Source of the DNA: Rhizobacter sp.
GTDB taxonomy: Bacteria; Pseudomonadota; Gammaproteobacteria; Burkholderiales; Burkholderiaceae_C
Length of the DNA stretch: 41,015 nt
NCBI GenBank assembly: GCA_025355545.1
Contig: JANXZN010000371.1
Coordinates: forward strand, 1 to 41,015
Reading direction: 5' to 3'
Shown here piece after piece: positions 26,817 through 31,051 of this stretch; positions within the stretch are counted from its first letter, which is position 1, and each line of letters opens with the position of its first letter. The notes beneath the pieces are model-generated. The model made no database searches, was not told the DNA's origin, and saw only the letters and a list, made by a program, of their open reading frames with translations. A program made the position numbers and the translations under genes.

Positions 26817-27368
26817 CTATTGCACGAGATTCAGGATCTCGAGCTGCTCGTCCACGGTCTCGAAGGTACCGGTGCCCGCGGGCATCTGCATCAGCGGTTT
26901 GAGCTGCGGGTCGAACAGCCAGACGCTGGGGTAGACGAGCATGCGTATGCGCTGGTCGCCGATCGAATGCTGGAAGTCCGTGTAGTTCAGCAACCTGTCG
27001 CCGACGCGGATGAAGAGCAGGTTCGCCGTCGTCGACAGCGTGCTGCGCAAGTCGACGACGATCCAGGGCCTGAAGTGCGGCACCAGTTCGTCCGCGCTCT
27101 TGCCGAGGAAGTTCTCGTAGCGCCGGCAGTAGGGGCAGTCGCTCGCGCCGAGGTAGACGTACAGGCGCTTGTTCTCGCGCTTCGCGCGCGCGAGCGCCGG
27201 CCCGAGGTCGAATTCGGAGCGGCCGGAGGCGATCGTTGGTTCGACCACCAGCGGCGTGTACGCGGGTGGAATGCCGACCGCGTTCGCCGCCGCGACCAGC
27301 AACGCCAGCAACACGCCGGCGAGAAAGCTGCCGGCGGATCCGCGGTGCAGGCGCAGCGGCATCGTCAT
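26817..27368 (-). CDS. Periplasmic thioredoxin-fold protein (SoxW-like)
   Basis: N-terminal signal/TM; LYVYLGASDCPYCRRYENFLGKSADELVPHFRPWIVVDL (CPYC). Confidence 0.8.
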   Translation of the reverse strand: MTMPLRLHRGSAGSFLAGVLLALLVAAANAVGIPPAYTPLVVEPTIASGRSEFDLGPALARAKRENKRLYVYLGASDCPYCRRYENFLGKSADELVPHFRPWIVVDLRSTLSTTANLLFIRVGDRLLNYTDFQHSIGDQRIRMLVYPSVWLFDPQLKPLMQMPAGTGTFETVDEQLEILNLVQ

Positions 27369-28207
27369 CCGATCTGCAACGAGCCGGTGAAGCGGCGTTC
27401 CTTCGAGTCCGCGACCTCGGCGCGCAACTCGCCCGGCGCGTGCGGCACGAAGTTGAAGCGCCAGGTCGGGTTCTCGCTGAGCGAGAAGTCGAGGTCGGCG
27501 TCGAAGATCGTGCGGCCCGCGTAGCTCACCGCGATCGTGCGCACGAAGTACGACGGGATGTACATCACTGTCACGCTGTTCAGCTCGAAGCCGGTGTCGT
27601 TCGGATGGATCACGGTCAGGTCGGCGGTGGTCGGCACGCCCATCTTCGGCGCCTCGGGCAGCTTGAAGATTGTCTTGCCGATCAGCTCCGGCGAGTCGCG
27701 GTTGGGCGGCGCCGAGCAGCCGCCGGAGGTCTTCACATAGCGCGAGTCCATGTGCAGTTCGCCGTTCGAAAGCTCGCTGACGACCCGCACATGGCTGTAT
27801 TCGTCGACACGCAGCCGCGTCTCGAAATCGGCCTGCCCGACCTCGGGCGTCAGTTCGAGGGTGGCGGCCAGAGGCGACGGGTTCTTGTCGACCAGCAGGT
27901 GCAAGCGCCGGACATACAGCGCCGGTGTCTGGGCCAGCAGCGAGACGATCTTCACCGGCACCGACGCGCCGTACGCGGCGCGCAGCGGGGCGATCAGCTG
28001 CACCCGGCCGGAACCGGCTGCGATGGGTCGGGCGCCGAAAAGTCGGCTGCGCAGCAGCTCCCATTCGGGCGAGACGTCGGCGTGGCCGGTGTTGCCGGGC
28101 AGGCCGCCGATCGCGGCACGCGCTGCCGGCGCCAGCGCCAGCACGCCGAGGCCGAGCACCAGGCGGCGGCGGTGAATCCGCGGTTCGAGGCGTGGGCTCA
28201 GGGTCAT
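27365..28207 (-). CDS. Quinoprotein dehydrogenase-associated SoxYZ-like carrier (copy A)
   Basis: Signal peptide; KTSGGCSAPPNRD cysteine motif; C-terminal SoxZ-like VRTIAVSYAGRTIFDADLDFSLSENPTWRFNFVP. Confidence 0.82.
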   Translation of the reverse strand: MTLSPRLEPRIHRRRLVLGLGVLALAPAARAAIGGLPGNTGHADVSPEWELLRSRLFGARPIAAGSGRVQLIAPLRAAYGASVPVKIVSLLAQTPALYVRRLHLLVDKNPSPLAATLELTPEVGQADFETRLRVDEYSHVRVVSELSNGELHMDSRYVKTSGGCSAPPNRDSPELIGKTIFKLPEAPKMGVPTTADLTVIHPNDTGFELNSVTVMYIPSYFVRTIAVSYAGRTIFDADLDFSLSENPTWRFNFVPHAPGELRAEVADSKERRFTGSLQIG

Positions 28208-28229
28208 GGTCTCGGTGCTCCCAACAGGG

Positions 28230-29242: not shown

Positions 29243-30094
29243 TCAAGCGGCCGGCGCGACGTCAAGGCTGCTCTTCCATGCGGTCTGGTTGCTGTCCACC
29301 ACCTCGGCGGTGAGCCGGCCCGGGCCGCGTGGCACGAAGTAGAAGCGCAGGTTCGGGTTCTCGCTGATCGAGAAGTCGAGATCCGCCGACAGCACCGAAT
29401 GGCCGCCGTAGGCGACATTGACCGTGCGCACGAACCAGCGCGGCGTGAACTGGCGCGTCAACTGGTCCATCACCATGCCCGAGTCGTTCGGGTGGCTGAT
29501 CATCAGCTGGACCAGCGTCGGCTTGTTGAGCACGACCTCGCCGTCGACGCGCATTCTGATCTTGCCGAGCGCGGCCAGCGCGGCCTGCGGGTCTTTTCCG
29601 GGGGGCGCCGAGCAGCCGCCGGACGCCTTGACGAAGCGCGTGCGCATCAGCAGCCGGCCGTCGCTGGTCTCGGCGATCGCCCGCACGAAGGTGTACTCGT
29701 CGACGCGTACGCGGGTCTCGATATCGGCCCGGCCGCTTTGCGGCGTGAACGAGAAGATCGCCGAGATCGGCGACGGGTTGTTGTCGATGATCAGATAGAG
29801 CTTGGCGACATAGCTGGCCGCGGTGTGCGGCAGCCGCGCGCGCATCGCGATCGGCACGACGGCGGCGTCTTCCGCGCGCACCGGCGCATCGAGCAGCAGC
29901 GTGTCGTCGCCGACGTTCGTGATCGGCCGGGTCTCGAACAGGCTGGCGCGCACCTTCTGCCAGATCTCGCTCGCCTCGGGGTTGTTGCCGGACTGGATGG
30001 CGGCACGCGCGCCGCGTGCCCCGCCGAGTGCGAGCGCCGCGATCAACGCGGCACCGGCGGCCGTGACCTCGCGCCTGTCCATCCTGTGTTTCAT
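29243..30094 (-). CDS. Quinoprotein dehydrogenase-associated SoxYZ-like carrier (copy B)
   Basis: KASGGCSAPPGKD; VRTVNVAYGGHSVLSADLDFSISENPNLRFYFVPRGPG, parallel to copy A. Confidence 0.82.
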   Translation of the reverse strand: MKHRMDRREVTAAGAALIAALALGGARGARAAIQSGNNPEASEIWQKVRASLFETRPITNVGDDTLLLDAPVRAEDAAVVPIAMRARLPHTAASYVAKLYLIIDNNPSPISAIFSFTPQSGRADIETRVRVDEYTFVRAIAETSDGRLLMRTRFVKASGGCSAPPGKDPQAALAALGKIRMRVDGEVVLNKPTLVQLMISHPNDSGMVMDQLTRQFTPRWFVRTVNVAYGGHSVLSADLDFSISENPNLRFYFVPRGPGRLTAEVVDSNQTAWKSSLDVAPAA

Positions 30095-30103
30095 CGTGGC
30101 ACC

Positions 30104-31051
30104 TCAGTCTTCCCACTCCAACTCTGCAAACGCTGCAGTGACGTTGCGGCGGTGGAAGCGTTCGGCAAGCTGCCAGCGTGACGCCGCGGTGGCGCCGACG
30201 CTGTCGACCGCCTGGGACAACGTCTTGTGCGACTTGAGGGCGGCGCGGGTTTCGCGCAGCAGAACCTCAAGATACTCCTGCTGCGGCTTCCATGCATCGG
30301 GCCCGCCGCGGCTGGTCGGGCCATGGCCGGGCACGACCAGGGCCGCGTCGATCCGGGCGAGCTGCCGCATCGTGTTGAGCCAGCCGCGAAGGCTGCCGTC
30401 GACGACCGGAATGTGCTGCACGAACAGCAGGTCGGAGGCGAACAGGGTGCGTGTTTGGCGGTCGTAGACGGTCAGGTCGTTGTCGGTGTGCGCGGTCGGC
30501 CAGGTTTGCGCGACCAGCACCCGGTCGCCCAGGTCGAACTCCTGGGTTCCGTCGACCGCGATCGTCGGGTAGACCACCGAGTCGCGGGTCGCGCTGACGC
30601 CGAAGTCGCGCTCCAGCGCGCGCAGGAAGTAGGGCGCGCGCGCGGCCATTGCGGCGTTGAACTTCGCGCTGGCGACGAAGCGGGTCTGCGCTGTGGCAAA
30701 CGCCGCATTGCCGAGCACGTGATCCGGATGGGCATGCGTGTCGAACACGAAGCAGATCGGCAGGCGTGTCGTGCGTTCGATCGCCGCGCGCCAGCGCAGG
30801 CCGAGTTGCGGCGTGCCGCCGGTGTCGATCACCGCCACGCAACGGCTGCCGACGACGAAGCCGAGATTCGCGATGTCGCCGCCGTTGCCCGGCAACCAGT
30901 CCTCGACCACGCCGGCGTGCACATAGACGCCCGGAGCGACCTCGGTGACGGCCAGCGGCGGCAGATCGGCGCCGGCCTGTGCCGCCGCGGCAGCGTGCAG
31001 CAAGGCCGCGAGCAGCAGGGCGCCGGCGCGTCGGTGCAGCGTGGTCAGCAT
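30104..31051 (-). CDS. Quinoprotein relay system zinc metallohydrolase (MBL fold, copy B)
   Basis: FDTHAHPDHVLGNAAF (HxHxDH), WPTAHTDNDLTVYD, LFASDLLF, LVVPGHGPTSRGG. Confidence 0.88.
   Translation of the reverse strand: MLTTLHRRAGALLLAALLHAAAAAQAGADLPPLAVTEVAPGVYVHAGVVEDWLPGNGGDIANLGFVVGSRCVAVIDTGGTPQLGLRWRAAIERTTRLPICFVFDTHAHPDHVLGNAAFATAQTRFVASAKFNAAMAARAPYFLRALERDFGVSATRDSVVYPTIAVDGTQEFDLGDRVLVAQTWPTAHTDNDLTVYDRQTRTLFASDLLFVQHIPVVDGSLRGWLNTMRQLARIDAALVVPGHGPTSRGGPDAWKPQQEYLEVLLRETRAALKSHKTLSQAVDSVGATAASRWQLAERFHRRNVTAAFAELEWED

What the first reader, a model, noticed from the sequence alone, without database searches (positions are those of the whole stretch)
26817..31051. Duplicated periplasmic 'quinoprotein relay' module (SoxYZ-like carrier + MBL protein, twice, plus thioredoxin)
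Two consecutive carrier/MBL pairs (27365-29219 and 29243-31051) plus a CPYC thioredoxin-fold protein follow xoxFGJ on one strand. Both carriers keep an SGGCSAPP motif reminiscent of the SoxY swinging-arm cysteine, and both have a SoxZ-like C-terminus. Such families are known as PQQ-dehydrogenase-associated, but I know of no established function. Hypothesis: a carrier-bound thiol adduct (for example S-hydroxymethyl from periplasmic formaldehyde, or a sulfur species) is formed near XoxF and released by the MBL hydrolase, with the thioredoxin keeping the carrier Cys reduced.
Basis: partly seen in the sequence, partly recalled or inferred. Interest (0 to 1): 0.82.

Follow-up and report, generated by a model that had tools for sequence, protein, structure and literature searches.

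The report
Thiol-carrier module with a zinc-less hydrolase
Next to a lanthanide methanol dehydrogenase, this betaproteobacterium encodes two cysteine-bearing carrier proteins, a dedicated thioredoxin and two metallo-beta-lactamase-fold proteins, one of which has lost its zinc site and gained an invariant cysteine pair; the families are known but nobody knows what they do, and the pattern of what is kept and lost points to thiol chemistry rather than hydrolysis.

Summary
Both carriers pass NCBIfam TIGR04557; the downstream thioredoxin-fold protein has CPYC. The families are known but without established function. Two parts of the reading change.

(1) This is not a recent tandem duplication. The carriers are 44% and the MBLs 33% identical; the MBLs belong to separate clades across Beta/Gammaproteobacteria, and the second carrier is a later addition. 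Close relatives have a beta-propeller and an MxaD-like gene between the pairs.

(2) The two MBLs are not equivalent. MBL-B (30104-31051) keeps all zinc ligands and passes TIGR04559. MBL-A (28230-29219) passes neither MBL model, lost the HxHxDH motif and carries CxxC, invariant in 64/64 homologues. Ten genomes kept MBL-A and carriers but lack MBL-B. The Burkholderiaceae TIGR04558 MBL also lost zinc ligands. No carrier examined lost its cysteine.

Fused carriers co-occur with PQQ dehydrogenases (27/28 genomes, p=2e-24) and sit near lanthanide-type ones (18/21), but also at the mxaH position of mxa operons and beside ethanol-type enzymes. A formaldehyde-specific hydrolase cycle is therefore unlikely. 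I favour a periplasmic thiol accessory system for PQQ-dehydrogenase maturation or protection; the chemistry is untested.

The parts
34720..36699 (-). XoxF5-type lanthanide methanol dehydrogenase (true start lies inside this ORF); vicinal CC pair; Asp+2 lanthanide motif EWDFDGINE
   Evidence: TIGR03075 712 bits; best PDB match 6dam XoxF; motif
34188..34676 (-). XoxG c-type cytochrome
   Evidence: PF13442; CxxCH cysteines 41/41 in homologues
33289..34203 (-). XoxJ periplasmic binding protein (start approximate)
   Evidence: TIGR03871 276 bits, over cut-off
32273..33403 (-). Trypsin-like serine peptidase with TPR-like tail, present in many but not all related loci
   Evidence: PF13365
31513..32247 (-). 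Secreted protein of unknown family, conserved beside XoxF5 from Rhizobiales to Burkholderiales
   Evidence: no Pfam or NCBIfam match; present in L186, L187, L189
31079..31453 (-). Small secreted protein with four conserved cysteines (C43, C58, C60, C118), unknown family
   Evidence: 45/45, 45/46, 46/46 and 45/45 in aligned homologues; beside the carrier also in Alphaproteobacteria
30104..31051 (-). MBL-B: quinoprotein relay system zinc metallohydrolase 2, complete zinc ligands (HAHPDH, H, D, H)
   Evidence: TIGR04559 364.7 bits, cut-off 280; motif in all complete homologues
29243..30094 (-). Carrier B: fused SoxY-SoxZ-like protein, single conserved Cys161 in SGGCSAPP
   Evidence: TIGR04557 264.8 bits; model mean pLDDT 89.8
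28230..29219 (-). MBL-A: metallo-beta-lactamase fold without zinc motif, invariant CxxC (C147, C150)
   Evidence: PF00753; below cut-off of TIGR04558 and TIGR04559; CxxC 64/64; model mean pLDDT 92.4, MBL fold
27365..28207 (-). Carrier A: second fused SoxYZ-like carrier, single clade, Cys164 in SGGCSAPP
   Evidence: TIGR04557 228.2 bits; clade support 100
26817..27368 (-). Secreted thioredoxin-fold protein, CPYC, overlaps the end of carrier A by 4 bases
   Evidence: PF13899 weak match, below Pfam cut-off; both Cys 16/16; linked to carrier A
23536..26801 (+). pqqABCDE, converging on the module from the other side; PqqA peptide MQWTIPTASDFRFGFEITMYVSAR at 23536
   Evidence: homologues in related loci; gene identities otherwise from sequence inspection

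Best explanation
The module is a periplasmic thiol-based accessory system for PQQ alcohol dehydrogenases, here XoxF5. Its chemical core is the single cysteine in the tethered loop of the fused SoxYZ-like carrier. I propose that this cysteine takes part in thiol-disulfide or thiol-adduct exchange needed to mature, repair or protect the dehydrogenase (for example its vicinal disulfide, or PQQ against sulfur nucleophiles). In Burkholderiales a second carrier (A) was added together with its own CPYC thioredoxin, which would return that carrier to the thiol form. MBL-B is the only member with a complete zinc site and would cleave a carrier-bound adduct where it is present. MBL-A is a former metallohydrolase turned into a CxxC partner or docking protein. 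Shown here: family membership, cysteine conservation, zinc-site loss, linkage and co-occurrence. Inferred: every chemical step and the target.
For: Carrier Cys never lost (99/99). MBL-A C147/C150 invariant in 64 sequences down to 37% identity while former zinc positions decay (H198 45/64, H256 43/64, R116 variable). Control: other MBLs drawn by the same profile lack the CxxC and mostly keep the zinc motif. MBL-B absent from 10 genomes that keep MBL-A and both carriers. The Burkholderiaceae TIGR04558 MBL has NLHPDY and GGL where gammaproteobacterial members have HxHPDH and GDL, a second loss. Carrier A with thioredoxin in 16/16 loci. A XoxF locus with carrier and thioredoxin but no MBL. Co-occurrence with PQQ dehydrogenases 27/28, p=2e-24. 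Lanthanide-type enzymes near carriers 18/21 versus 5/20 in carrier-less genomes, p=1e-4. No association with SoxYZ sulfur oxidation (5/28 versus 37/215).
Against: The vicinal disulfide also occurs in PQQ dehydrogenases of genomes without the carrier and in P. aeruginosa ExaA (PMC12997753), so the module is not generally required for it. Transposon data cited in PMC12997753 showed minimal phenotypes in P. putida, though without lanthanide. In the model the MBL-A CxxC lies inside a long helix (137-158), unlike the helix start of thioredoxins, so metal binding is equally possible. An intact-zinc MBL beside what look like sox genes occurs elsewhere in several of the genomes without MBL-B and might substitute.
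Confidence: 0.4

Rival explanations
1. Sulfur protection: the carrier cysteine captures sulfide, sulfite or sulfane sulfur that would form adducts with PQQ; MBL-B hydrolyses the carrier-bound species, and thioredoxin regenerates the thiol.
For: Homology of all parts to Sox proteins; [quoted passage not shown] a rhodanese-like CXXCW protein is part of alphaproteobacterial XoxF5 clusters.
Against: No association with SoxYZ sulfur oxidation; no CXXCW protein found in this genome; zinc hydrolase often lost or degenerate.
Confidence: 0.25
2. One reading: S-hydroxymethyl (formaldehyde) adduct on the carrier cysteine, released by the MBL.
For: Formaldehyde is the XoxF1 product in M. extorquens (PMC6414531); glutathione-dependent formaldehyde oxidation genes adjoin the module in Rhizobiales and Ruegeria.
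Against: Same carriers beside non-methanol PQQ dehydrogenases; MBL-A has no zinc site; MBL-B dispensable; hydrolysis of an S-hydroxymethyl adduct only returns formaldehyde.
Confidence: 0.1
3. The carrier binds PQQ through a thiol adduct and delivers it to apo-dehydrogenase.
For: Restricted to PQQ-dehydrogenase genomes; beside XoxJ-like maturation proteins and pqq genes; at the mxaH position of mxa operons.
Against: No PQQ binding data; some PQQ-dehydrogenase genomes lack it (14 of 41); does not explain MBLs or thioredoxin.
Confidence: 0.1
4. Neutral remnant: paralogues kept by chance, MBL-A a decaying pseudo-enzyme.
For: Zinc ligands lost in several ways.
Against: CxxC, carrier Cys and reading frames strictly conserved across diverged genera; zinc-less MBL kept while the intact one is lost.
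Confidence: 0.05

Closest known systems
NCBIfam TIGR04557 quinoprotein dehydrogenase-associated SoxYZ-like carrier
   Same: Both carriers pass the model; linked to PQQ dehydrogenase
   Different: Two paralogues in one operon; carrier A forms its own clade with a dedicated thioredoxin
NCBIfam TIGR04558 and TIGR04559 quinoprotein relay system zinc metallohydrolases 1 and 2
   Same: MBL-B is a TIGR04559 member with a full zinc site
   Different: MBL-A scores 174 and 186 bits against cut-offs of 300 and 280, lacks the zinc motif, has CxxC
Pseudomonas putida ped cluster PP_2666, PP_2677, PP_2678 and M. extorquens META1p1703-1705 (PMC12997753)
   Same: SoxYZ-like carrier and SoxH-like MBL with lanthanide PQQ dehydrogenase; thioredoxin-like gene in M. 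extorquens
   Different: The review lists one carrier and one MBL; rhodanese-like partner not found in this genome
Sox system SoxY, SoxZ, SoxH, SoxW
   Same: SoxY and SoxZ folds, GGC loop cysteine, MBL and thioredoxin partners
   Different: Carrier fused, cysteine loop tethered at both ends, no association with SoxYZ genes
mxaH of the classical methanol dehydrogenase operon
   Same: In two genomes with an mxa operon the TIGR04557 carrier occupies the mxaH position (mxaD, beta-propeller, carrier, then two-component genes)
   Different: Positional inference only; the M. extorquens MxaH sequence was not examined

Membership tests
TIGR04557 SoxYZ-like carrier | Score over curated cut-off (140 bits) | tested here: met
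   228 and 265 bits
TIGR04557 SoxYZ-like carrier | Fused SoxY and SoxZ domains with GGC cysteine | tested here: met
TIGR04557 SoxYZ-like carrier | Association with PQQ dehydrogenase | tested here: met
   27/28 genomes
TIGR04559 zinc metallohydrolase 2 (MBL-B) | Score over cut-off and complete zinc ligands | tested here: met
   364.7 bits against 280; HAHPDH, H, D, H
TIGR04559 or TIGR04558 (MBL-A) | Score over cut-off | tested here: not met
   185.7 against 280 and 174 against 300; relatives also below
Metallo-beta-lactamase superfamily, active enzyme (MBL-A) | HxHxDH and further zinc ligands | tested here: not met
   HTRQEF; Asp replaced by Gly
Metallo-beta-lactamase superfamily, fold (MBL-A) | MBL fold | tested here: met
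   PF00753; model against 8d2z TM 0.70-0.78
True SoxY or SoxZ | Score over TIGR04488 and TIGR04490 cut-offs | tested here: not met
   67-78 against 125; 42-57 against 76
Thiol-disulfide relay | Redox exchange between thioredoxin, carriers and MBL-A | not testable with these tools
   Needs biochemistry; only cysteine conservation and linkage shown
XoxF5 lanthanide methanol dehydrogenase | Close XoxF match and Asp+2 | tested here: met
   6dam, E 1.5e-282; EWDFDGINE

The most novel reading that the evidence does not exclude
MBL-A defines a new class of zinc-less metallo-beta-lactamase-fold protein that uses an invariant CxxC as a thiol-disulfide (or metal) partner of SoxYZ-like carriers, in a periplasmic relay that matures or protects lanthanide PQQ dehydrogenases; the same carrier family occupies the long-unexplained mxaH position of the classical methanol dehydrogenase operon.
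Probability: 0.3. Interest if true: 0.75.

Novelty: new variant of a known kind. Interest (0 to 1): 0.55.

Why it matters
Lanthanide methanol dehydrogenases are widespread, and how they are assembled and protected is still incompletely known. The SoxYZ-like carrier and its MBLs have been listed as companions for years without a function. The cysteine and zinc patterns give a direct test (carrier Cys-to-Ser, MBL-A CxxC-to-SxxS, single and double MBL deletions under lanthanum) and move attention from hydrolysis to thiol chemistry. If the mxaH position is confirmed by sequence in a model methylotroph, old mxa genetics would bear on the same question.

Tried and rejected
Recent tandem duplication of a carrier/MBL unit: rejected by trees, identities and the mblB-carB-mblA order without carrier A in Paraburkholderia, Caballeronia, Thauera and Nevskia. 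Loss of the carrier-B cysteine where MBL-B is lost: first suggested by a too narrow pattern, rejected on the alignment. A rhodanese-like CXXCW protein in this genome: not found. Link to SoxYZ sulfur oxidation: none. A twin-arginine export signal as a general carrier feature: only a minority of carrier B match a simple pattern, so not claimed. MBL-A as a class-wide family: in 243 class genomes a clear hit was seen only in the window's own genome, and most of the other loci inspected have HxHxDH, so MBL-A is restricted mainly to Burkholderiales and some Gammaproteobacteria. Papers on mxaE/mxaH gave only expression data. The Nat Commun 2025 paper on methanol dehydrogenase assembly was not held.

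Full report
What is there. On the minus strand the window holds XoxF (34720-36699), XoxG, XoxJ, a trypsin-like protein, an unknown secreted protein (31513-32247), a small four-cysteine protein (31079-31453), MBL-B (30104-31051), carrier B (29243-30094), MBL-A (28230-29219), carrier A (27365-28207) and a CPYC thioredoxin-fold protein (26817-27368). XoxF is closest to solved XoxF 6dam and has the lanthanide Asp+2 motif. pqqABCDE converges from the other strand, with PqqA at 23536.

Families. Both carriers pass TIGR04557, MBL-B passes TIGR04559, and MBL-A passes neither MBL model. The same holds for the MBL-A relatives scanned from Rhizobacter, Paraburkholderia, Nevskia and Azoarcus; the Azoarcus one is publicly annotated only as MBL fold metallo-hydrolase. 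These families have names but no established function; a 2026 review places them in ped and xox clusters and proposes disulfide formation, cofactor stabilisation or protection of PQQ from sulfur nucleophiles (PMC12997753).

Not a simple duplication. Carriers share 44.5% and MBLs 33.2% identity. MBL-B and the TIGR04558-type MBLs are each one clade with support 100; MBL-A lies apart from both, with weak support for the whole group (24; 91 without one long-branch row). Carrier A is one clade with support 100. Many Paraburkholderia, Caballeronia, Thauera and Nevskia loci have MBL-B, carrier B and MBL-A but no carrier A, so carrier A with its thioredoxin looks like an addition. In Rhizobacter sp. 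Root404 and other relatives a YVTN beta-propeller and an SRPBCC (MxaD-like) gene lie between the two pairs; in the window only 23 bases separate them.

MBL-A. In 120 close homologues, and in a 64-sequence alignment reaching down to 37% identity, C147 and C150 are the only conserved cysteines (invariant in the 64), while HxHxDH is replaced (HTRQEF, HQAPEF, QPIQEF and others), the later Asp ligand is usually Gly, and two remaining His positions are kept in only 45 and 43 of 64. The homologues were chosen by overall similarity, not by cysteines. As a control, MBLs found by the same profile in other families lack the CxxC and mostly keep the zinc motif. The model is confident (mean pLDDT 92.4) and matches MBL structures; the CxxC lies inside helix 137-158. 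MBL-B keeps its zinc ligands in all complete homologues.

What is kept and what is lost. Ten loci with MBL-A and both carriers lack MBL-B, and none of those ten genomes has a TIGR04559 protein over cut-off. Several do have an intact-zinc MBL (HYHADH) beside genes that look like soxB or a flavocytochrome (recognised by eye), which might substitute. The TIGR04558 MBL beside other PQQ dehydrogenases has an intact zinc motif in gammaproteobacteria outside Burkholderiaceae (HHHPDH, HAHPDH with GDL) but NLHPDY and GGL in Burkholderiaceae, all passing the model where scanned. So zinc ligands were lost at least twice in carrier-associated MBLs. One XoxF locus has carrier and thioredoxin without any MBL (L219). 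The carrier cysteine was present in all 99 carriers of the XoxF type that were aligned. Carrier A is followed by the thioredoxin in all 16 loci where the contig continues.

Co-occurrence. Counting only matches over cut-off without internal stops, 28 of 243 genomes drawn from the class have a fused carrier; 27 of them have a PQQ alcohol dehydrogenase, against 14 of the other 215 (p = 2e-24); the exception is 64% complete. Dehydrogenases within about 10 kb of a carrier are lanthanide-type in 18 of 21 cases, against 5 of 20 in genomes without a carrier (p = 1e-4). This does not correct for relatedness, and the association is not exclusive: some carrier-linked enzymes are MxaF or ethanol-type. There is no association with separate SoxYZ genes. 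In two genomes the carrier stands after mxaD and a beta-propeller at the end of the mxa operon, where M. extorquens has mxaE, mxaH and mxaB; identity with MxaH is inferred from position only.

Mechanism. The carrier's cysteine loop joins the SoxY and SoxZ domains and is tethered at both ends, so it is not a free swinging arm. Conserved thiols in carrier, MBL-A, thioredoxin and the small protein, together with dispensable zinc hydrolysis, favour thiol exchange over hydrolytic release. The target could be the dehydrogenase disulfide, PQQ or sulfur species; I cannot decide between them here. A formaldehyde-specific role is unlikely because the carriers also serve other alcohol dehydrogenases and because the window carries genes that look like the tetrahydromethanopterin pathway.

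Verdict. Known families, new variant: a paired-carrier arrangement with a zinc-less, CxxC-bearing MBL. By motif, the annotation 'zinc metallohydrolase' does not fit part of TIGR04558, and treating MBL-A as a metallo-hydrolase is misleading.

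Noticed in passing
window 36768-40831 (+): Divergent from xoxF: ABC ATPase (36768-37793), YncE-like beta-propeller (37834-38805) and ABC-2 membrane protein (39302-40831), like the PQQ-dependent-catabolism-associated ABC cluster.
   Followed up: partly
window 5814-19813 (+): DUF6513 protein, an amidohydrolase-like and a GXGXG protein consistent with formyltransferase/hydrolase subunits of the tetrahydromethanopterin C1 pathway, then a pabB-like gene: a possible route for formaldehyde oxidation beside xoxF.
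   Followed up: partly
window 31079-31453 (-): Small secreted protein with four conserved cysteines and no family model, conserved beside carriers from Rhizobiales to Burkholderiales.
   Followed up: partly
window 31513-32247 (-): Secreted protein of unknown family beside XoxJ, conserved in many XoxF5 loci; no Pfam or NCBIfam match.
   Followed up: no
L181 9994-13288; L182 10335-14970: mxa operon ending in mxaD-like, YVTN beta-propeller, SoxYZ-like carrier and two-component genes; suggests mxaE is the propeller and mxaH the carrier in these genomes.
   Followed up: partly
L185 6746-8299 (-); L216 5666-6607; L217 5166-6167: Proteins passing TIGR04558 'zinc metallohydrolase 1' differ in zinc ligands: NLHPDY/GGL in Burkholderiaceae, HxHPDH/GDL in other gammaproteobacteria; the family name overstates zinc dependence.
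   Followed up: yes
L219 3921-8869: XoxF locus with XoxG, XoxJ, small protein, carrier and thioredoxin-like protein but no MBL.
   Followed up: partly
G000:C56, C76, C121: The window's genome holds at least four further PQQ dehydrogenase-like genes besides XoxF.
   Followed up: no
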